Positions 2,966 to 62,372 of a stretch of 64,000 bases of DNA are shown here, one piece after another. The stretch's first letter is position 1. Each line of letters opens with the position of its first letter. The translations under genes and the position numbers were made by a program. Source of the stretch: Deltaproteobacteria bacterium GWA2_38_16 (lineage in GTDB: Bacteria > Bdellovibrionota > JACOXK01 > 2-02-FULL-40-11); contig MGPE01000009.1 in the NCBI GenBank assembly GCA_001797335.1, forward strand, positions 4,090 to 68,089, read 5' to 3'. The notes under the pieces are model-generated. The model did no database searches. It was not told the DNA's origin and saw nothing but the letters and a program-made list of their open reading frames with translations.

Positions 2966-4341
2966 CGGTATTGTTTTTTTAAAACTTCTAAAAATTCTAA
3001 GCCACTCTTCCAAATATCTCCAGCCCCTAAGAGTAATACAACATCCTTTGGCCTCACATGTTTTTCCAGTTCATGAGAGATATTTCGACGACTTGCTACT
3101 AAACAAGCATGTTTATGTTTTTTTCGAAGAAGACGATATAATTTTTCTGAACTCACCCCTTTAATGGGTTTTTCTCCAGCTGAATAAATTTCTGTGAGTA
3201 ATAAAACATCTGCTCTTTGAAAAGCCCCAGAAAACTCTTTCATTAAATCCCGAGTTCGAGTGTAGCGATGCGGTTGAAAAACAGCCAGCAGTCGTCTTTT
3301 AGGCCACACTTTCTTACAGGCTTCAAGCGTGGCTTTAATTTCTGTGGGATGATGCCCATAATCATCCATGACCGTAATGCCATTCACCTCTCCTCGAATA
3401 TGAAAGCGCCGCTGTACGCCACTATACGCTAAAATGCCTTTTTTTATTTTTGAAAGACTTAACCCTAATTCAAGCCCCATAATAATGCAGGCCAAGGTAT
3501 TTTTAACGTTATGAATCCCTGGAGCTTTTACTGAAAATCGTCCTAATTTTTTACGTTTAACATAGACATCAAAGGAACTGGTAATGCCTTTTAATTCAAT
3601 GTGCCTGGCTTGAAAGTCACATCTTGAACTTATTCCATAGGTAATAATTCTTTTATTCACCCGAGGGAGAATAGATAAAATATTTTTTTCATCTCCACAA
3701 ACAATGCCTACCCCATAAAAAGGTAAACGATTTAAAAATGTTACAAAGGCATCTTTAATAGCCTCCATATTTTTATAATAGTCCAGGTGATCCGCATCGA
3801 TATTGGTGACAATGGCAATCGTCGGAGTTAATAAATTAAAAGATCCATCACTTTCATCGGCTTCAGCCACCAAAAATTTTCCTTGTCCCAATTTAGCATT
3901 GGTCCCCCACTTATTGAGTCTTCCTCCAATCACAACGGTTGGATCCACTTTACACGTAGCCAAAAGCGTTCCAGAGATTGAAGTCGTTGTTGTTTTTCCG
4001 TGAGTGCCAGCAATGGCAATGGCATATTTCATTTTCATAAGCTCTGCCAACATTTCTGCTCTTGGAATTACAGGAATTTTTAATTTTTTAGCTTTTAAAA
4101 CTTCAGGATTACTTTTGGATACAGCAGAAGAAATAACAACCACATCAGGTTTTTTAATATTCAAAGACCTATGACCTAGATAAATCGTAGCTCCTAATTG
4201 ATTTAATCTTTTAGTAATTTCTGTAGTGGCAAGATCAGAGCCACTGATTTTATAGCCCAGGTTTAATAAAACCTCCGCAATCCCACTCATCCCAATCCCA
4301 CCAATGCCTACAAAATGCACATGCCTAAAGCTTTTCTGCAT
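2962..4341 (-). CDS. murC: UDP-N-acetylmuramate--L-alanine ligase MurC
   Basis: ATP-dependent ligase adding L-Ala to UDP-MurNAc, the first stem-peptide step. The N-terminal UDP-binding loop GIGGIGMSG is at residues 12-20, the ATP P-loop GTHGKTTTT at 112-120, and the C-terminal ligase domain contains DDYGHHPTEI. Length 459 matches the family. The frame starts at ATG 4341, 42 bp after murG, and ends in a 4-bp overlap with murB, suggesting translational coupling. Confidence 0.97.
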   Translation of the reverse strand: MQKSFRHVHFVGIGGIGMSGIAEVLLNLGYKISGSDLATTEITKRLNQLGATIYLGHRSLNIKKPDVVVISSAVSKSNPEVLKAKKLKIPVIPRAEMLAELMKMKYAIAIAGTHGKTTTTSISGTLLATCKVDPTVVIGGRLNKWGTNAKLGQGKFLVAEADESDGSFNLLTPTIAIVTNIDADHLDYYKNMEAIKDAFVTFLNRLPFYGVGIVCGDEKNILSILPRVNKRIITYGISSRCDFQARHIELKGITSSFDVYVKRKKLGRFSVKAPGIHNVKNTLACIIMGLELGLSLSKIKKGILAYSGVQRRFHIRGEVNGITVMDDYGHHPTEIKATLEACKKVWPKRRLLAVFQPHRYTRTRDLMKEFSGAFQRADVLLLTEIYSAGEKPIKGVSSEKLYRLLRKKHKHACLVASRRNISHELEKHVRPKDVVLLLGAGDIWKSGLEFLEVLKKQYR

Positions 4342-4383
4342 AAAATATTCTTTATCACATGTTGAGATAGGATTTAAAGAACT

Positions 4384-5436
4384 TTACGCGAGTAATTGAT
4401 CCACAATGGCTTGGGCGGCGTAGGGATGAGAAAATTGAAGAATGTTTTTTCTCATGTGGTCAAGTTCTCTAGGATGCTCATAGGCATACTGAATTTCTTT
4501 AGCCAATTGCTGGCCATTGAGTTGCCAGTCTAAAAGTACCCGGGTCGCTCCTTTTTTTTCAAATGCACGAGCATTGGCTTCCTGATGATTATGGGCCGCA
4601 TAGGGATACGGTACAAAAAGGCATGCTTTTCCTAAGACAGCAAGTTCTGCTACTGAGGATGCGCCAGCTCGACAAATGACATAATCAGATTGGGCATAAA
4701 TTCTATCAATGTCGTCAATAAAATCATACACATCTGCTTTCCAATGTTGCTGAAAATAAGTGGAAGCTACCCATTTTAAATCTGTTTTTCCGGTTTGATG
4801 AATAAGATGAATGCGATTTTTAAGCGTTTCTAAATAGGGGAGTGCTTCTAAGAGCGCTCGATTTAAGGAATGAGCTCCTTGGCTTCCTCCAAAAATAAAG
4901 ACAGTAAATTTTTCATGAGGAATACTACTTGTACTCTTAAATTTTCGGACGGGATTTCCCGTTACAACACTTTTTTGAGAAGGAAAGTAGTGAACGGATT
5001 CATCAAAACTAACAAAAATTTTTTGAACCAATAAAGAAAGAATTTTATTGGTTAGCCCTGGCCTAAAATTTTGTTCTTGAATGGCTCTTTTTTTTCTCAA
5101 TACCCATGCCATCCATAAAATAGGGAAACTGGCATAGCCTCCCACTCCTAAAATCACATCAGGATTAAATTGCCGAATAATAAAAAAAGACTGAATTAAA
5201 GAAATAGGAATTAGACAAAGAGTAATAAATTTTTCTAAAGGATTTTTCCCTTTTAACCCATCGATAGAAACAAATTTTAAGGGATAATGAAGACTGGGTA
5301 ATACTTTGGCTTCAATTCCTTTTTTGGTCCCAACAAAAAGAATTTCATGATGGCCACGACTTAAAAATTCTTGGGCAATCGCAACTCCTGGGAATAAATG
5401 CCCTCCGGTACCACCCCCTGCAATGAGTAACTTCAT
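4384..5436 (-). CDS. murG: Lipid II synthase MurG (GT28)
   Basis: Inner-leaflet glycosyltransferase transferring GlcNAc from UDP-GlcNAc to lipid I. The first glycine-rich loop GGGTGGH is at residues 7-13, the second, GGSQGAHSLN, at 183-192. The donor-binding stretch with RAGASSVAELAVLGK, VPYPYAAHNHQ and a following E lies in the C-terminal half. Length is 350 residues. It overlaps ftsW by 4 bp (ATGA), so lipid II synthesis and its flippase/polymerase partner are co-translated. Confidence 0.97.
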   Translation of the reverse strand: MKLLIAGGGTGGHLFPGVAIAQEFLSRGHHEILFVGTKKGIEAKVLPSLHYPLKFVSIDGLKGKNPLEKFITLCLIPISLIQSFFIIRQFNPDVILGVGGYASFPILWMAWVLRKKRAIQEQNFRPGLTNKILSLLVQKIFVSFDESVHYFPSQKSVVTGNPVRKFKSTSSIPHEKFTVFIFGGSQGAHSLNRALLEALPYLETLKNRIHLIHQTGKTDLKWVASTYFQQHWKADVYDFIDDIDRIYAQSDYVICRAGASSVAELAVLGKACLFVPYPYAAHNHQEANARAFEKKGATRVLLDWQLNGQQLAKEIQYAYEHPRELDHMRKNILQFSHPYAAQAIVDQLLA

Positions 5437-6551
5437 CGATACGTACTCGTTGAAACATCTTGTTGTTGAGCAGAAATATTTAACAATATTCCTACCCCCG
5501 CTAAATTACAAATAACAGAAGTACCTCCATAACTTAAAAAAGGAAGCGCTAAACCTTTTGTTGGAAGAAGCCCCATGACAACAGCAATATTGGTAATGGC
5601 TTGAAAACTAATAAGAGAGGTAATCCCCAAGGCTAAATAAGTTCCAAATAAATCGGGTGCTTTTAAACTAATGCGAATCCCTCGATATAAAAAGAGCACA
5701 AAAAGAATAATGACTGCCATGACTCCCATAAAACCCAATTCTTCTCCAATCACCGAAAAAATAAAATCTGTATGCGCTTCAGGAAGATAAAAAAGTTTTT
5801 GGCGCCCATCTCCAAGCCCTAATCCTAAAATATTTCCTGAATAAAATGCTAAAAAAGATTGAATAATTTGAAATCCCGTATTGGCTGGATCTTCCCAAGG
5901 ATTTAAAAAAGCTAAAATTCTTTTTTTCCGATAGGGAGTACTCATCATCAGATAACACGCCGTTGGCACTAAAACGATTAGCGCAGAAATAATATATGAA
6001 AGACGGGTGCCTGCAGCAAAGAGCATTAAAAAAACAATAAAGGCAATAGAGACCGCTGTTCCAAAATCCGGTTGAAGAAGAAGAAGCCCCAAAAATAATC
6101 CTGTAACGATAAGATGAGGGACAAAACCAATGGCAAATGATTTCATGCTGCCTTCTTTTTTAGACAGTGAATAAGCCAGATAAAAAATAAGCGCATATTT
6201 AGCAAATTCCGATGGTTGAAATCGAAAAAATCCTAAATTTAGCCATCGTCTGGCTCCTCCTACTCGATGTCCAATGCCAGGAATCAAAAGGGCAATCATT
6301 AAGACTAAACAGATAAATAAAAAGGGATAAATGATTTTATAATAAGAATGATAATCAATGAGTAAAAAAACGATAAGAGCAATAAAGCCTAAAGAAGCAA
6401 AGAGAAATTGTTTTTTTAAAAAAAAATAACTGTCATGATAATTTTGGAGGGCATAAATAGAACTGGAGCTATAGACCATGACAATACCAGAGAGCACTAA
6501 AACAAAAGTAATAACCAACAACCAATAATCAAAAGGAATCTTTCGACTCAT
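5433..6551 (-). CDS. ftsW: Septal peptidoglycan glycosyltransferase FtsW (SEDS)
   Basis: Polytopic SEDS-family polymerase that works with FtsI at the septum. About ten hydrophobic segments span 372 residues. Conserved family stretches include RRWLNLGFFRFQPSEFAKYA, the extracytoplasmic loop before FIFSVIGEELG, and LPFLSYGGTS near the C-terminus. The position between murD and murG favours FtsW over the elongation paralogue RodA. The ATG lies in a TAATG overlap with the murD stop. Confidence 0.95.
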   Translation of the reverse strand: MSRKIPFDYWLLVITFVLVLSGIVMVYSSSSIYALQNYHDSYFFLKKQFLFASLGFIALIVFLLIDYHSYYKIIYPFLFICLVLMIALLIPGIGHRVGGARRWLNLGFFRFQPSEFAKYALIFYLAYSLSKKEGSMKSFAIGFVPHLIVTGLFLGLLLLQPDFGTAVSIAFIVFLMLFAAGTRLSYIISALIVLVPTACYLMMSTPYRKKRILAFLNPWEDPANTGFQIIQSFLAFYSGNILGLGLGDGRQKLFYLPEAHTDFIFSVIGEELGFMGVMAVIILFVLFLYRGIRISLKAPDLFGTYLALGITSLISFQAITNIAVVMGLLPTKGLALPFLSYGGTSVICNLAGVGILLNISAQQQDVSTSTYR

Positions 6552-55359: not shown

Positions 55360-55381
55360 GTGTTTCAAAAGCTTGAAACAC
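55360..55381. terminator. 9-bp-arm hairpin after nuoN; terminator or operator
   Basis: GTGTTTCAA/TTGAAACAC with an AAGC loop, followed by TTTGTTATTTT. That fits an intrinsic terminator for the nuo operon. The same GTTTC/GAAAC core recurs in the palindrome at 55402-55414, so it may also bind the downstream regulator. Confidence 0.6.
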
Positions 55382-55398: not shown

Positions 55399-55427
55399 TT
55401 GAGTTTCTGAAACTTCCCTGTTATAGC
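55399..55427 (+). promoter_or_regulatory. Promoter with palindrome in its spacer, TIGR02147 operon
   Basis: TTGAGT (55399-55404), 17-bp spacer, TATAGC (55422-55427), 11 nt before the ATG. AGTTTC-T-GAAACT (55402-55414) is a perfect palindrome lying across the -35 end and spacer, where a bound repressor would block RNA polymerase. Confidence 0.55.
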
Positions 55428-55438
55428 CTTTCCCAACC

Positions 55439-56209
55439 ATGAATGACCAAAGAGCTATACAAAGTGTACTTCAGTCGAAACTGACAGAGTTTCAATTAAA
55501 AAACACTGCCTTTTCACTTCGTGCTTTTTCAAATAGGCTTGGAATGAGCCCAGGGGCCGTTTCTCAAATTTTGAATGGAAAAAGATTTGTTTCTAAAAAG
55601 ATAGCCCAAAAAATTTGTGATAAACTTCTCTTAGATCCTCAAGAAAAATCAGAGATTGTTGGGCTTTTTCCTGAACAAAAAAAAGAACTCTTAAATAATA
55701 CTGCTTTAGAACCCAATTATCTTCAACTTCAGTCAGACCAGTTTCGAGTGATTTCAGATTGGTATTATTTGGCCATTCTCTCTTTAATGAAAACCCGAGG
55801 GTTTAAACAAAGCCCACAATGGATATCTAAACGTCTTGGCATATCCCAGAAAGAAGCCAAAGAGGCCATGACCCGATTAAAAAGATTGGGGCTCATTGAG
55901 AAAGATAAAAAGGGTGGGTTAAAGCGTTCCGTTCCACGTTATCGAACCTCTGATGACACAAAAGATGTATCTGTACAAAAATCTCATTTTCAAAGCTTGG
56001 AACTCGCACAAAAGTCATTAACAACGGATCCCGTTCAAGAAAGAGATTTTACTTCAATCACCATGGCCATTAATTCTAAGAAATTGGCTGAAGCAAAAGT
56101 TTTGATTCGAAAATTTCAAGATGAATTAAGTGGTCTTTTAGAAGATTCCACCCCTGATCAAGTGTATCGATTATGTGTTCAACTTTTTCCATTAAGTCAA
56201 GGGAGGTAA
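55439..56209 (+). CDS. TIGR02147-family regulator (HTH plus DUF4423-like)
   Basis: 256 residues. N-terminal Cro/CI-type helix-turn-helix: FSLRAFSNRLGMSPGAVSQI then LNGKRFVS. The middle, VISDWYYLAILSLMKTRGFK then WISKRLGISQKEAKEAMTRL, is a second winged-helix-like region typical of TIGR02147, and the C-terminal SITMAINSKKLAEAKVLIRK completes the family pattern. The family is abundant in Fibrobacter and Bdellovibrio relatives, with few characterised members. Its stop codon lies within the ribosome site of the first secreted gene, 5 nt before that ATG, so it heads the array's operon. Confidence 0.85.
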   Translation: MNDQRAIQSVLQSKLTEFQLKNTAFSLRAFSNRLGMSPGAVSQILNGKRFVSKKIAQKICDKLLLDPQEKSEIVGLFPEQKKELLNNTALEPNYLQLQSDQFRVISDWYYLAILSLMKTRGFKQSPQWISKRLGISQKEAKEAMTRLKRLGLIEKDKKGGLKRSVPRYRTSDDTKDVSVQKSHFQSLELAQKSLTTDPVQERDFTSITMAINSKKLAEAKVLIRKFQDELSGLLEDSTPDQVYRLCVQLFPLSQGR

Positions 56210-56301
56210 ATAATATGCGTAACTTATTCTATATCGGACTTTTAATGGCAGGGCTCATCTCACCCACTTTTGCTGGAGATAAAGTAGGAAATGGGGGAGA
56301 T
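56202..56301 (+). repeat. Start cassette, copy 1
   Basis: 100 nt from GGAGGTAAATAAT through codon 29 (GDKVGNGGD). Differs from copy 4 at 2 positions, from copy 2 at about 13 and from copy 3 at about 11, counted by eye. Confidence 0.9.
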
Positions 56302-57846
56302 GTCGTGGTTTGCCGGAATACAGTAAATGAAGTTACTTCGATTGAAGCCTTAGATATTTATGAAGGGAGAGTGCGCTGGACTATCGAACTTGATTTGGGA
56401 GATGCTTCTTTGTCTCCTCTTCAAAAAGTGGAATTGGCTCTTTCAAGGTTAGGGCGAATTTCGTCTATCCGAGCAGAGAGGTATTTAGAAAAAGCCAAGC
56501 AGTTTGACGCTAACGCTCTCTTTTTAGATAATACCGAGCTTCCAGATATTTCTGATTCTAACCATTTAATTTTTCCAAAAGGCTGTAAAGTCGAACAAAT
56601 TATTGTCCAACGAACTCCTCATTTTTCAGATGATAGACGATATTTGGTCAGTAATGATCTTTGGAAACAACTAGACTCTACAAATAAAGCTGCTCTTATA
56701 CTTCATGAAATTATTTATGAAGAAGCATTAGAATTTGGGCATCAAGATTCTGTCCCTACCCGTTATTTTAATGCTCATCTCATGTCCCATCGATTTGAAA
56801 CTTTTACGCCAAAAGAAATGGCTGCTTTTTTTAAGACAATTGATTTTAAGAAATTTGATTATCAAGGTTTTATTTATGCTTCTTCTAGACTTGAATGCCA
56901 TCACCAATTCATCAAAGAAGAGATGTGGCCCATTCAATTTTTTGATAATGGCATGGTTGTTAAAAGTGGCTGTATTTTAAGTGGCTCTATCGAAGTTCAA
57001 GGACAAAAAGCAAATGTGGCAGGATTTATTTCTTTTCATGATAACGGACAGCCTCATTCTTTCATGGCCAGTTCTCCCGATCCACAAAAACCACTCATGG
57101 TCAGAATTAATGAAAAAGATTATGCCCCATATGATGGGGGAGAAATCCAGCTCTATCAAGATAGTAGTTTGAAAGCGGTCGTTTTGGCCTTAGATGATAA
57201 AAATGGATTAGTTTTTGAATCCACCAATTATTCTTTGAATACAGTCGCAGTCGATAATCCATGGGGAAAGGGGAGTCGTCCCTTAACTGTAATCCTTTAT
57301 CCGAATGGGGGCATAAGTAGCCTGATAGCCATAGAACCAGATAGGCATTATCCCAAACAAATTAAAGGATGGGGAATGAGTCGAGGTCAAAGGATATATA
57401 TTAGATCAAATCGTGTTGATTTTTTTTCAGATGAAACTGTAAAAATGGCAACCATCTCTTATGAAACACCTTTAACTTTTACGATTGATGAGCATCAGTT
57501 GAAATTTGCAGGGTATGTAGAGCTCTACGAAACAGGGGAATTAAAAAGTGGTATTTTCATTGCAGAACCTCAGAAATCGTTCTGGGGAAATACGTACTTT
57601 GAAAAAATAGCGATTCCTTTTTTGGTCGGAGATCAAAAAACTAAATTTTGGCTAAAAAAAGAAACAAATGATTGGTTTGAAGGAAGATATATTCACTTTT
57701 ATCCTGGATATAAAGTTAAACAAGGAATGTTAGCGCAGTCCGCAACATTTAAAACTACGGATGGGCAAACAATCGTTGTTCAAGAAGGACAGATAGTATC
57801 TTTAGATGAACAAGGACGATTATTACAGGGGCAAAGTGAATACTAA
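56215..57846 (+). CDS. Secreted GDKVGNGGD-family protein 1
   Basis: 543 residues from ATG 56215. Signal peptide MRNLFYIGLLMAGLISPTFA, mature start GDKVGNGGDVVVCR, a pattern common in Bdellovibrio-group secreted proteins; then EVTSIEALDIYEGR. His164-Glu165 lies in LHEIIYEEALEFGH, a helix common to all four neighbours. The C-terminal half repeats beta-like modules with similar phrases (FISFHDNGQPHSFM, VILYPNGGISSLI, YVELYETGELKSGIF), possibly a beta-strand repeat. Function unknown; a periplasmic or released effector is likely. Confidence 0.8.
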   Translation: MRNLFYIGLLMAGLISPTFAGDKVGNGGDVVVCRNTVNEVTSIEALDIYEGRVRWTIELDLGDASLSPLQKVELALSRLGRISSIRAERYLEKAKQFDANALFLDNTELPDISDSNHLIFPKGCKVEQIIVQRTPHFSDDRRYLVSNDLWKQLDSTNKAALILHEIIYEEALEFGHQDSVPTRYFNAHLMSHRFETFTPKEMAAFFKTIDFKKFDYQGFIYASSRLECHHQFIKEEMWPIQFFDNGMVVKSGCILSGSIEVQGQKANVAGFISFHDNGQPHSFMASSPDPQKPLMVRINEKDYAPYDGGEIQLYQDSSLKAVVLALDDKNGLVFESTNYSLNTVAVDNPWGKGSRPLTVILYPNGGISSLIAIEPDRHYPKQIKGWGMSRGQRIYIRSNRVDFFSDETVKMATISYETPLTFTIDEHQLKFAGYVELYETGELKSGIFIAEPQKSFWGNTYFEKIAIPFLVGDQKTKFWLKKETNDWFEGRYIHFYPGYKVKQGMLAQSATFKTTDGQTIVVQEGQIVSLDEQGRLLQGQSEY

Positions 57847-57860
57847 TTATTCTTTGCAAA

Positions 57861-57960
57861 GGAGGTAAATAATATGCGTAACTTATTCTATAGTGGACTT
57901 TTAATAATGAGCCTGCTCTCACCCACTTTTGCTGGAGATAAAGTAGGCAATGGGGGAGGC
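57861..57960 (+). repeat. Start cassette, copy 2
   Basis: Same 100-nt module; differences cluster in the hydrophobic core of the signal peptide (SGLLIMSLL). Confidence 0.9.
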
Positions 57961-59082
57961 GCTGTTGTTTGTAGAAGTTTGACTGATAACAGCGTTTTTT
58001 CTTCAGAATTACTTGATTTATGGGAAGGTAAAGAATTCCTTGATCTTTCCATACCAGAATCATCAAAAGAGGTGAATGAACAGCATTTGTCTGCATTAGA
58101 GGTAATAAGAAATGTAGGAAAACCAGAGAAAAAGTTGTCTGACAAAAATCTTCTTAATTCTATAAGTGATTTCACAGAAAGAATTTATTTAGATATTTTA
58201 GAGGCCACTCGTCATATCGATAATTCAACAAGCGATCTGCCTTTGGATATGGGTATCAATTTAACCAATGATATTTATGCAGTCTACTATAAGAAGACAT
58301 TACGAAGTATGAGCACGCCGAACCTTCGATGTGGATTAGAGATGGTGGCATATTATAGGCCAGATGGCACTTTAGAGAGAGACACTGAAATCTATGACCA
58401 TTTTACGTTAACCAGTAAAGCCGCTTTAAAAACACACGAATCTATTTACAAGGCAGCCCGAGAATTTTCAACCTTTGCTCATGGAAAGAAAAAAGTTTTA
58501 AATGATTCAAGAGACGTTAGAGAACTTGTTGCGTATTTATATTCTCAAGAACCAGACCAGGGTAAAATTTTAAATAGTCTTCACGCTCTCTTCGGTTATC
58601 GCCCAACTGAGCAGAAATATGTTGATGTTAAACCCGATGATCATCAAGAAACAAATCTCAGGATCTCAATTCTTACATCCAAAAGTCTCGAAAAAGGGGG
58701 ATTTATAGATAGTTTTATAGATCGAGAAAGTTTAAGGGGAGTCCAACTCGGTTACAATGCTTATTTATATGATGAAACACGCTCAAATCCTGTTAAAATT
58801 TCTGGGGCAACATTAGATTCAAAACAGAATCCAAAAGAACGCTTTTTGTTGTCTCAAAACATACAGGACTTACGTCATAAAATAATCTATATTGAGGGTT
58901 TTTTCTCACCTCGTCGTAATGCAACTGAGTACCTGAGAGAAGACTCGATAGAAATGACCGTTGCGGTAAAACTTGAATTATTGGGTAACAATGATGTCGT
59001 TTTGGCGGAGAGGTCTGGCACATTAATCTTTTCAACAAATACGCTTGAACCCTTTGTCATGCTTTTCTGTGAACTATATTGA
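57874..59082 (+). CDS. Secreted GDKVGNGGD-family protein 2
   Basis: 402 residues. Signal peptide MRNLFYSGLLIMSLLSPTFA, mature GDKVGNGGGAVVCRSLTDNS then SSELLDLWEGKEF, closest to protein 1 in this N-terminal region. His188-Glu189 is in KTHESIYKAAREF. The C-terminal part (about 255-400) is unlike protein 1 and has a beta-rich pattern. The ribosome site AAAGGAGG is strong; 27 nt separate it from protein 1. Function unknown. Confidence 0.78.
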   Translation: MRNLFYSGLLIMSLLSPTFAGDKVGNGGGAVVCRSLTDNSVFSSELLDLWEGKEFLDLSIPESSKEVNEQHLSALEVIRNVGKPEKKLSDKNLLNSISDFTERIYLDILEATRHIDNSTSDLPLDMGINLTNDIYAVYYKKTLRSMSTPNLRCGLEMVAYYRPDGTLERDTEIYDHFTLTSKAALKTHESIYKAAREFSTFAHGKKKVLNDSRDVRELVAYLYSQEPDQGKILNSLHALFGYRPTEQKYVDVKPDDHQETNLRISILTSKSLEKGGFIDSFIDRESLRGVQLGYNAYLYDETRSNPVKISGATLDSKQNPKERFLLSQNIQDLRHKIIYIEGFFSPRRNATEYLREDSIEMTVAVKLELLGNNDVVLAERSGTLIFSTNTLEPFVMLFCELY

Positions 59083-59085
59083 AGA

Positions 59086-59185
59086 GGAGGTAAATAATAT
59101 GCGTAACTTATTTTATATAGGACTTTTAATAATGGGCCTCATCTCACCCACCTTTGCGGGAGATAAAGTGGGAAATGGGGGGGAT
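59086..59185 (+). repeat. Start cassette, copy 3
   Basis: Same 100-nt module, about 89% identical to copy 1; preceded by GAAGA. Confidence 0.9.
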
Positions 59186-60529
59186 GGCACGGCTTTGGAA
59201 TTTAAGCATATAGCAATGGATTTGTATGATTACTTTAAAACTCTCCCTCCAGCTATGTTACCTGAAAAAATGCAAGATATAGACCTTCTTGTATTTAAAA
59301 ACTTTATAGATAATCTCAATGTTACTTCCAAGGCGCAATTTGATCCACCCCATGAAAATTTCACTGCTATGAATTTTAGTTACCCTCATGAAACAGATTT
59401 GGAAGGAGGACAAATTATTATCAATAGAAGTCGGTGGAGTGAAGAAACTCAAAAGAAAGCTGTTGTTTTGCATGAATTATTGGGATTGATGGGGAAAGAT
59501 AGAAAATACGACGTGTCTCATGAGTTTGTAAATACCATCGTAGATAATGAAGCAGCCTTTTCTCAGATCTATGATCTTATACAGGGGATAAGATCAGCAC
59601 ACGGATTTTTTGAAACGGCCATGAGTTATTTTCAAAGTGTGCATAGCGGTAAAGCATCGGAACTTACTCATCAATTGATGTGGACACATCCAAACAAAAC
59701 GGCCATGAGTGAAATGCCAAAGAGAGAGGCCTTAGAAATGATCGAGCTATTTCAAGGTGGAGCTAGAGAGTATAAAACTTTTTATGAACAGTCATTTCAA
59801 TTACAACATAGTATTTTGAGTTTGGCTTTAACCCTAATAGATTTAGAGGTATATCCAGAAATTCAAGCTGCTAAAAAAGCGTTGATTTGGGATGAAACTG
59901 TTGTTCCTGACCTTTTTTCTAGATGGGATAATGGAATGCAACTATACCTTAATCAATTTAACAATACAGTCAGTGATACCGTTATGATTGATGTCAGACA
60001 ATATACCCATGATCTTTGGGAATGGGTTCACTTGATCCATGAAATAAGAAATAGAGTGATGTCTTATTCAAAGCTTGTGACCGAGTTATATAATAGCCTT
60101 CCTGTTATAGAAAGTCGTCTTTATAAAACTGCTATTTTAAGTGGAGAATATCCAAAAAAAGACCAAGAAAGACTAAAAGAGCTATTGGAAGTACCCTCTG
60201 TCCATTTTATTATCCTAGGAAATAATAAAGATGCTCAAGTTGCAGTGAGAAACGCATCACATCTTTCCGGATTCGAAGGAGACCCCAGAGATGTCATCTG
60301 GATTAAAAAACCAGAATTAGCGAGAGAGGTCTTAGAAGCAAGCTTCCCTGAACAGTTAAAGGCAAATCGTTTTAATGGTGCCCTTGCATTTACAACATCA
60401 ATGTATGGAACTGTCTCAGATATTATTGACCAAGAAGAAACTGTTGATCTTTTTCGAGTTTTTGCTGGCTACGTTAGGGCTGAAGCTAATGTAAAAGATC
60501 AAGCGGGACTCAATACAGGAGGTAAATAA
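59099..60529 (+). CDS. Secreted GDKVGNGGD-family protein 3
   Basis: 476 residues from ATG 59099. Signal peptide MRNLFYIGLLIMGLISPTFA, mature GDKVGNGGDGTALEFKHIAM; the VVCR segment is missing. His125-Glu126 is in VVLHELLGLMG, followed by a second SHEF. The remaining 300 residues are mostly helical and unrelated by eye to the neighbours. Its stop codon lies inside the ribosome-site cassette of gene 4. Function unknown. Confidence 0.78.
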   Translation: MRNLFYIGLLIMGLISPTFAGDKVGNGGDGTALEFKHIAMDLYDYFKTLPPAMLPEKMQDIDLLVFKNFIDNLNVTSKAQFDPPHENFTAMNFSYPHETDLEGGQIIINRSRWSEETQKKAVVLHELLGLMGKDRKYDVSHEFVNTIVDNEAAFSQIYDLIQGIRSAHGFFETAMSYFQSVHSGKASELTHQLMWTHPNKTAMSEMPKREALEMIELFQGGAREYKTFYEQSFQLQHSILSLALTLIDLEVYPEIQAAKKALIWDETVVPDLFSRWDNGMQLYLNQFNNTVSDTVMIDVRQYTHDLWEWVHLIHEIRNRVMSYSKLVTELYNSLPVIESRLYKTAILSGEYPKKDQERLKELLEVPSVHFIILGNNKDAQVAVRNASHLSGFEGDPRDVIWIKKPELAREVLEASFPEQLKANRFNGALAFTTSMYGTVSDIIDQEETVDLFRVFAGYVRAEANVKDQAGLNTGGK

Positions 60530-60617
60530 TATGCGTAACTTATTCTATATCGGACTTTTAATGGCAGGGCTCATCTCACCCACTTTTGCAGGAGATAAAG
60601 TAGGAAATGGAGGAGAT
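60518..60617 (+). repeat. Start cassette, copy 4
   Basis: Same module, 98 of 100 positions identical to copy 1 although two genes lie between. Confidence 0.92.
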
Positions 60618-61823
60618 GCTGTTAAAAAAGAGGGGGAGCTCATACCCAGAGATCTCATACCCAGTGGCCCAGGCTCAGCCTTTATTCCACTGCCCCTCTC
60701 AAAGAAAAAGGAATTTCTAAACAATCTTCCTGGATTTATGAACCTTATTAAAAATATTGGACAAGCCCATCCAGGTTTAGCTCTAGCAATCTGGGATGAT
60801 TTAATGAATGCAAAAATTTATTTAGTCGATTGGGAACTGGATGTTTTACCCAGAGCAGAAACCAGCATTAGTTCAGATTTTCATGCAGACAGGCAGGTGT
60901 GCATTCGTACTGAAAACGAAATTATTTGTTCCTTACCTGCCCTCAACGAATCAAAAGAACAACGCGTCTATCCCATACATGAATCGTTACACTCCATGAT
61001 TAGAGGAGAAGGCCCTATTAAACACGAGAAAGTAAGAGCCATGACACGTTATTTAATTGAAAATGAAGAACACTATTCATTTGAAGATTTACAAGAAATC
61101 ATGAACACGCTTGGCGTATACAATGAACTTACAGGTTACTATTGGTCAATGATTAAAAAAGTGCATCGGAAATCAGGTTGGTTTTACGAAAGAGAGCGTG
61201 AAATTGTTGATATCTTATTTCAAGAAATGGGTTCCAATGAAGCTCGCTGCGCTCTTTATAAAGAGGTTATAAATTCTTGGTCAACACGTGAGTACCCCCT
61301 ATTCAATAGTATTGAATTACAAAAGGTTATTGAAAAAGGATTTGATCACTGGGCTAACTATGATCAGTGTCCTAATGACGAACGATTCAGCTATATGAAT
61401 GCTCTTGTTCCTACCTGGAATGACTCATATGTACTTGTAAATAAAGCCAGTTGGGTTTCTCATTCGTATGTTTATCCTCTAAGTATTTGGGAAGCGGAGG
61501 AAACTGAAGATAGATGTAATACATATGCTAATGACACATTAGGAGAATGGTTAAAACAAGAAAAAGTGCAACTGGAGCAAATCAAAACTGATTTGATTCC
61601 TGCTCTTAAGCACAGACTTCAAGAGGAATCTGAAGCTGGAGACCCAGCCACAGCTGAATATTTAAATTATGTGGCTTTGAATAAAGGCTGGATTGAAAAA
61701 GTAGATATCGCTTTAGAAAACGTAAATAATGCACTCTCAACTTTTGAGAAAAATCAAAAAATCTGTCAGGACCACAAAGAAAAATCATCTAGAGGTTTTT
61801 TGGGATGGCTTAAGTTTTGGTGA
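60531..61823 (+). CDS. Secreted GDKVGNGGD-family protein 4, HExxH-containing
   Basis: 430 residues. Signal peptide MRNLFYIGLLMAGLISPTFA identical to protein 1, mature GDKVGNGGDAVKKEGELIPR. His150-Glu-Ser-Leu-His154 forms an HExxH motif, as in zinc metallopeptidases; the other three have only HE at this place. Five cysteines lie in the mature part and the C-terminus is a basic amphipathic stretch, SSRGFLGWLKFW. Helical, charged. A protease role is possible but a third zinc ligand cannot be assigned. Confidence 0.78.
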   Translation: MRNLFYIGLLMAGLISPTFAGDKVGNGGDAVKKEGELIPRDLIPSGPGSAFIPLPLSKKKEFLNNLPGFMNLIKNIGQAHPGLALAIWDDLMNAKIYLVDWELDVLPRAETSISSDFHADRQVCIRTENEIICSLPALNESKEQRVYPIHESLHSMIRGEGPIKHEKVRAMTRYLIENEEHYSFEDLQEIMNTLGVYNELTGYYWSMIKKVHRKSGWFYEREREIVDILFQEMGSNEARCALYKEVINSWSTREYPLFNSIELQKVIEKGFDHWANYDQCPNDERFSYMNALVPTWNDSYVLVNKASWVSHSYVYPLSIWEAEETEDRCNTYANDTLGEWLKQEKVQLEQIKTDLIPALKHRLQEESEAGDPATAEYLNYVALNKGWIEKVDIALENVNNALSTFEKNQKICQDHKEKSSRGFLGWLKFW

Positions 61824-61928: not shown

Positions 61929-62372
61929 ATGAAGAAATATAGCTTAGGTGTTTTATACTTTATATTCTTTATGCCTTCTGTTCTTTTTGCTGATCGTCTA
62001 TGCATTGAATCTTCAAAAATTCAATATGGCTACGATGAGTTTACAGATGAATTTCATTACTATTTTGATTCTTATGGGGTTGGACTTGTAATTGGACGCT
62101 ATTGGCTTCGATACCCAGATCAGAGGACCGAAATTGGACACAGTTTAGAAGCTCTATACAATAATCCATTTAAAGAAAGAATTTTTGTGTGTTTTGAAAA
62201 AGAAAAAGCAGTCTCACGAGGAACGGGCTGGTTTTTAACAGATGGTTTTAAATATTCTCATAAAACATTGCCCATAACTCAAGCGATCCCATCTGTATTT
62301 ATTCCATATTCGGGAATGTTTGAGTCTGATTTGTCTGGACAAGTTTTAAATCCTTTGGTCAAAACAAACTGA
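61929..62372 (+). CDS. Small secreted protein of unknown function
   Basis: 147 residues. Signal peptide MKKYSLGVLYFIFFMPSVLF with cleavage near ADR. Two cysteines (LCIESS, FVCFEKEK) could form a disulfide. Aromatic-rich, no family recognised. A good AAAGGAGAG ribosome site precedes the ATG. The 105-bp gap from protein 4 contains no clear hairpin, so it could still belong to the array operon. Confidence 0.65.
   Translation: MKKYSLGVLYFIFFMPSVLFADRLCIESSKIQYGYDEFTDEFHYYFDSYGVGLVIGRYWLRYPDQRTEIGHSLEALYNNPFKERIFVCFEKEKAVSRGTGWFLTDGFKYSHKTLPITQAIPSVFIPYSGMFESDLSGQVLNPLVKTN

What the first reader, a model, noticed from the sequence alone, without database searches (positions are those of the whole stretch)
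55439..61823. Regulator plus four secreted proteins sharing a conserved start cassette but divergent bodies
Four tandem genes begin with an almost identical 100-nt module: ribosome site, signal peptide and GDKVGNGGD. Copies 1 and 4 differ at only 2 of 100 nt, yet the encoded bodies (402-543 residues) are largely unrelated apart from an N-terminal VVCR/LDxxEG block in two of them and a His-Glu helix in all. Conservation at nucleotide level, including silent sites and the non-coding leader, suggests ongoing gene conversion or cassette shuffling of the 5' end, or selection on an mRNA element, while the mature proteins diversify. A TIGR02147 regulator heads the same operon, its stop codon lying inside the first cassette. 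This looks like a regulated set of variable secreted effectors.
Basis: partly seen in the sequence, partly recalled or inferred. Interest (0 to 1): 0.85.

Follow-up and report, generated by a model that had tools for sequence, protein, structure and literature searches.

The report
Regulator-linked secreted proteins with swapped bodies
In this bacterium and across the phylum of Bdellovibrio-type bacteria, one kind of gene switch sits directly in front of secreted protease-like proteins, and in this window its shared front end is joined to four different protein bodies, which points to repeated recombination.

Summary
A TIGR02147/DUF4423 regulator (55439-56209) is followed by four secreted-protein genes that share a 101-nt 5' cassette: 98% between copies 1 and 4, 87-89% for copies 2 and 3. 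Beyond about residue 40 the bodies show no ordinary similarity, except a weak match of copies 1 and 2. Regulator and secreted gene form a phylum-wide module. In the window's genome 13 of 14 TIGR02147 genes directly precede a signal-peptide protein with a Gly-rich start, and all nine signal-peptide GNGG genes lie in such operons. Of 28 family loci found by protein search, 24 have the regulator upstream; of 36 more, 30. In another genus an 89%-identical regulator and its cassette lie at a different locus with an unrelated body. Window gene 1's body instead matches a paralogue (60% identity) with another signal peptide and regulator. Front ends and bodies have therefore recombined. The bodies are not wholly unrelated: they carry a His-Glu helix that is HExxH in 11 of 28 relatives, and zincins head a weak fold search, suggesting a secreted metallopeptidase/pseudo-peptidase family. 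An mRNA element is not supported. That they are predation effectors is inferred only.

The parts
55360..55381 (+). Perfect inverted repeat GTGTTTCAA-AAGC-TTGAAACAC, candidate operator of the regulator; a second smaller palindrome AGTTTCTGAAACT lies at 55402-55414
   Evidence: the first repeat is conserved upstream of the orthologous regulator in genus g2; GTTTC-N-GAAAC sites upstream of 5 of 71 regulators against 0.15 in shuffles, two of the five being orthologues. It was also listed as terminator-like, so 'operator' is an inference
55439..56209 (+). TIGR02147 / DUF4423 HTH regulator, first gene of the presumed operon
   Evidence: DUF4423 173 bits (cut-off 30), TIGR02147 128 bits (cut-off 50)
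56202..56302 (+). Cassette copy 1: ribosome site, signal peptide, GDKVGNGGD codons
56215..57846 (+). Secreted protein 1, 543 aa; zincin-like N-domain and a beta-rich C-terminal part
   Evidence: body paralogue in L057
56272..56850 (+). N-domain of protein 1 (residues 20-212); HE at residues 164-165 (56704-56709)
   Evidence: AlphaFold mean pLDDT 91.6, pTM 0.90; invariant G25 N26 G27 G28, C33, D47, D114, C124, H164, E165, R183
57861..57961 (+). Cassette copy 2
   Evidence: 87%
57874..59082 (+). Secreted protein 2, 402 aa, HESIY at residue 188
59086..59186 (+). Cassette copy 3
   Evidence: 89%
59099..60529 (+). Secreted protein 3, 476 aa, HELLG at residue 125
60518..60618 (+). Cassette copy 4
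   Evidence: 98%
60531..61823 (+). Secreted protein 4, 430 aa, full HExxH (HESLH) at residues 150-154 (60978-60992)

Best explanation
The locus is one member of a large modular family in Bdellovibrionota-type bacteria: an operon of a TIGR02147/DUF4423 HTH regulator followed, usually with a 4-nt overlap, by one or more Sec-exported proteins. Shown: the regulator-secreted protein linkage; the Gly-rich motif (GNGG and variants) just after the signal peptide; different histories of the front (promoter region + regulator + signal peptide + GNGG) and the body, which needs recombination; and in this window four bodies behind copies of that front, copies 1 and 4 recently copied or converted. Inferred: the bodies are zincin-like secreted metallopeptidases and pseudo-peptidases; the regulator controls its own operon through the palindrome ahead of it; the proteins act outside the cytoplasm, probably on other cells or on cell-envelope proteins, so that body exchange diversifies a regulated arsenal.
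For: 13 of 14 own-genome regulators precede a signal-peptide protein with a Gly-rich start. All nine signal-peptide GNGG genes of the genome, at six loci, are in such operons. Regulator upstream in 24 of 28 loci found by the secreted protein alone and in 30 of 36 further loci (four repeats left out). Motif class follows the regulator tree: 22 changes against 46.8 shuffled, 0 of 200 as low. The orthologous regulator in genus g2 is 89% identical; DNA homology runs from the palindrome to the GNGG codons and then ends, and the body is unrelated. nuoN in g2 genomes is followed by other nuo genes, so the loci differ. Gene 1's body matches L057 (60% over 519 aa, regulators 39%) while its cassette matches gene 4. 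A second array with shared cassette and unlike bodies is L135. HE pair in 28 partners, HExxH in 11 (my count); the first eight of 13 structural matches are zincins, Z at most 3.8.
Against: No structural match is strong (Foldseek E at least 0.9, Z under 4), and genes 1-3 lack the second zinc histidine. Palindromes are not significant ahead of most regulators. No expression or secretion data exist for these genes. Some family members lack a regulator next to them (3 of 28 have none on either side; 6 of 36 have none upstream on the same strand).
Confidence: 0.66

Rival explanations
1. Ordinary tandem duplication followed by fast divergence of the mature proteins under relaxed or diversifying selection, with the signal peptide kept by purifying selection; no recombination needed.
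For: Cassette 3 differs mostly at synonymous codons, as purifying selection on the peptide would give. Tandem copies with graded similarity exist elsewhere (L176, L180, L181).
Against: Bodies of 1 and 4 show no BLAST similarity beyond the start while their cassettes have dS about 0.11; gene 1's body is 60% identical to a gene elsewhere that has another signal peptide and regulator.
Confidence: 0.15
2. The cassette is an mRNA regulatory element (translation control or a regulator-binding RNA) conserved for its nucleotide sequence.
For: The ribosome site and first codons are identical in all four copies over about 20 nt.
Against: No unusual structure in any copy (z -0.47 to 0.66); copy 3 tolerates 7-8 synonymous changes; other operons of the family have quite different signal-peptide sequences.
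Confidence: 0.06
3. A signalling pair: a processed signal peptide or N-terminal GNGG peptide returns to the cytoplasm and is sensed by the cognate regulator, as in pheromone systems with HTH receptors.
For: Regulator and cassette stayed together while the body changed; the motif class after the signal peptide follows the regulator tree.
Against: Signal peptides differ widely between close regulators with similar bodies (L103/L104, L105/L108). In the predicted domain GNGGD leads into the first strand of a folded domain, so it need not be a free peptide. No TPR-type peptide-binding domain was found in the regulator.
Confidence: 0.1

Closest known systems
TIGR02147 / DUF4423 protein family (NCBIfam Fsuc_second)
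   Same: The window regulator and its 13 genome paralogues are members by score.
   Different: The family entry names no function; the library held no paper naming TIGR02147 and one naming DUF4423. I found no description of its linkage to secreted proteins with a Gly-rich start.
Zincin metallopeptidases (selecase, jannalysin, AQ_1354, zincin-like 3e11)
   Same: HE helix, HExxH in about a third of members, zincins top a weak structural list.
   Different: No sequence match to solved structures; N-terminal GNGGD and two invariant Cys; many members lack the second His.
Polymorphic secreted proteins with constant N-terminal and exchangeable C-terminal part (polymorphic toxins, Rhs; from general knowledge)
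   Same: Constant front, variable body, tandem arrays.
   Different: No toxin domain or immunity gene recognised; the regulator is part of the constant unit; the constant protein part can be as short as the signal peptide plus nine residues.
Bdellovibrio Bd3700 and exit-phase secreted proteases (PMC12546842)
   Same: A DUF4423 protein (Bd3700) rises at prey exit, log2FC 2.67, together with secreted proteases.
   Different: Those proteases are mainly serine proteases, and no link of Bd3700 to a GNGG gene was tested here.

Membership tests
TIGR02147 / DUF4423 regulators | Score above the curated cut-offs over nearly the full length | tested here: met
   128.4 bits vs 50 (TIGR02147, 20-271 of 272) and 173 vs 30 (DUF4423)
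Zincin metallopeptidases | HExxH zinc motif | tested here: inconclusive
   Gene 4 has HESLH; genes 1-3 have HEIIY, HESIY, HELLG; 11 of 28 partners have HExxH
Zincin metallopeptidases | Zincin fold | tested here: inconclusive
   Confident domain model (pLDDT 91.6); the first eight VIA rows are zincins but Z is 3.8 at best and Foldseek E at least 0.9
Zincin metallopeptidases | Zinc binding and proteolysis | not testable with these tools
   Needs purified protein
Polymorphic toxin systems | Recognisable toxin domain | tested here: not met
   No Pfam, NCBIfam or PADLOC match of note in the four secreted proteins
Polymorphic toxin systems | Constant N-terminal and exchanged C-terminal modules | tested here: met
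Peptide-pheromone HTH receptors (RNPP type) | C-terminal TPR peptide-binding domain | tested here: not met
   Pfam finds HTH_3 and DUF4423 but no TPR

The most novel reading that the evidence does not exclude
TIGR02147 regulators are, apart from one orphan clade, the dedicated control proteins of a phylum-wide polymorphic system of secreted proteases and pseudo-proteases in Bdellovibrio-type bacteria, in which regulator and export front are a fixed unit and enzyme bodies are exchanged to diversify what is delivered to other cells.
Probability: 0.35. Interest if true: 0.8.

Novelty: new variant of a known kind. Interest (0 to 1): 0.62.

Why it matters
It gives a function lead to two large unnamed families (TIGR02147 regulators, up to 38 matches in one genome, and the GNGG/HE secreted proteins) by showing that they are one module, and it offers a clear natural case of front-end/body exchange whose breakpoint can be read. 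If the proteins act on prey, it points to a regulated, diversifying toolkit of predatory bacteria that is directly testable in cultured Bdellovibrio, where a plasmid carries such a pair.

Tried and rejected
Single-protein search of genome contigs with P0005 found nothing; the alignment query worked. No solved homologue by sequence. mRNA structure of the cassette: nothing unusual. A general operator: palindromes stand out for 20 of 70 regulators only, and one shared GTTTC/GAAAC site for 5 of 71, so a common operator is not claimed. Anti-phage defence: only weak HTH-type matches. Plasmid spread of the N-domain: no match. C-terminal part of protein 1: low-confidence model, so its matches (OspA, Rhs, teneurin) are not used. 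Foreign origin by composition: operon GC equals its neighbours, GC3 slightly lower. The literature search for GNGGD listed only unrelated papers.

Full report
Observation. The window holds a TIGR02147/DUF4423 regulator (55439-56209) and four genes for secreted proteins. A 101-nt repeat begins each gene, at 56202, 57861, 59086 and 60518, with 87, 89 and 98% identity of copies 2, 3 and 4 to copy 1. A genome-wide search finds no fifth copy. Identity ends within a few codons of GNGG. Silent sites are not specially protected: copies 1 and 4 differ at two synonymous sites (dS about 0.11), but copy 3 differs from the others at 7-8 synonymous codons with dS about 0.54-0.66, close to that between the regulators of two genera (0.65). 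These dS values rest on 28 codons and are rough.

The module. The genome has 14 TIGR02147 genes. Thirteen are followed, mostly with a 4-nt overlap, by a signal-peptide protein with a Gly-rich motif (GNGG, GSGG, GGGDY, GTDVGGGG, GGEIGN) right after the signal peptide. Signal peptides were judged by a simple rule (early K/R, hydrophobic stretch), not by SignalP. In the other direction, a DNA-pattern census of GNGG in the genome found nine signal-peptide proteins with the motif near the start, at six loci, all in such operons. The same arrangement is common in relatives from many families of the phylum.

Unbiased direction. An alignment of the GNGG-VVC family was searched in named genomes without using the regulator: 28 loci from Bdellovibrionota-type MAGs. 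A model of the regulator built here finds it upstream in 24, downstream in one and absent in three. A second draw, the family model run over 78 genomes of the phylum (36 with matches), gave 36 loci not seen before; 30 have the regulator upstream, sometimes with one gene between. A cultured Bdellovibrio sp. (HAGR004) carries such a pair on a plasmid, about 2 kb from an IS66 element.

Regulator tree. Among 95 regulators the motif class of the partner is strongly clustered (22 changes, shuffled mean 46.8, none of 200 as low). A separate clade of nine, including the single unpaired regulator of this genome, has no partner at all. It is a FastTree tree, good for clustering but not for deep branching.

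Exchange of bodies. A genome of another genus has an orthologue of the window regulator (89% identity). DNA homology starts near the palindrome upstream of the start codon, runs through the regulator and the cassette, and ends at the GNGG codons; the body is unrelated by BLAST. The locus is also different: there the unit follows suf-like genes, and nuoN in genus g2 genomes is followed by other nuo genes. The body found there recurs in the same genome behind another regulator and signal peptide (39% over 246 aa), again in a tandem pair with shared start and unlike bodies. Conversely, the body of window gene 1 matches the gene of locus L057 at 60% over 519 aa, with nucleotide identity 79-88% in codons 30-210, although signal peptides and regulators differ. 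Gene 1 is thus a chimaera: front like gene 4, body like L057. In other motif classes (GTxVGGG, GxxGN) regulator and body mostly diverge together, so exchange is marked in the GNGG class. Whether the event was gene conversion of the front or replacement of the body cannot be told from these sequences.

The bodies. The N-domain of protein 1 was aligned with 26 relatives; invariant are G25 N26 G27 G28, C33, D47, D114, C124, H164, E165, R183. AlphaFold gives a confident domain (mean pLDDT 91.6, pTM 0.90). Foldseek finds nothing significant. The second look lists zincins in the first eight of 13 rows, with Z between 2.6 and 3.8, which by itself is weak. The sequence adds weight: 28 partners have the HE pair in the expected place and 11 of them, including window gene 4, read HExxH (my count from that list). 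I read this as a zincin-like family in which many members have lost the second histidine. The C-terminal part of protein 1 is not reliably modelled.

Regulation. A perfect 9-bp inverted repeat at 55360-55381 is kept in the other genus and could be the operator; it was also flagged as terminator-like, in a scan whose hits did not exceed shuffles. Palindromes of nominal significance precede 20 of 70 regulators, so this is a lead and not a rule. That the five genes are one transcript is inferred from spacing.

Function. The only paper in the library naming DUF4423 reports one such protein (Bd3700) among those raised at prey exit (PMC12546842). Together with the phylum and the secreted, protease-like bodies this suggests action on prey or on the cell envelope. 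No direct test was possible.

Verdict.

Noticed in passing
L067 (own genome C2:293053-293841) and eight relatives: A separate TIGR02147 clade, present in several genomes, that has no secreted partner gene; perhaps the ancestral or housekeeping form.
   Followed up: partly
window 61929-62372: A 147-aa signal-peptide protein after the array, without the cassette or the GNGG motif; no family match.
   Followed up: no
L206 (AP029177.1, Bdellovibrio sp. HAGR004 plasmid pBdHAGR1), locus 3986-5538: Regulator plus GNGG/LHELL protein on a plasmid, with an IS66 element about 2 kb downstream.
   Followed up: partly
L213, L216, L222, L188: Operons with one more gene between the regulator and a short (about 205-215 aa) GNGG protein.
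   Followed up: no
L066 and L125: Share a C-terminal domain at 44% identity behind different N-terminal parts; the L066 copy has a weak sub-threshold Lcl_C match.
   Followed up: no
Genome of L169/L176 (Bdellovibrionales bacterium RIFOXYC1_FULL_37_79): 38 TIGR02147 matches in one genome; L176 is a tandem pair 90-100% identical over about 200 aa, then variable, then alike again.
   Followed up: partly
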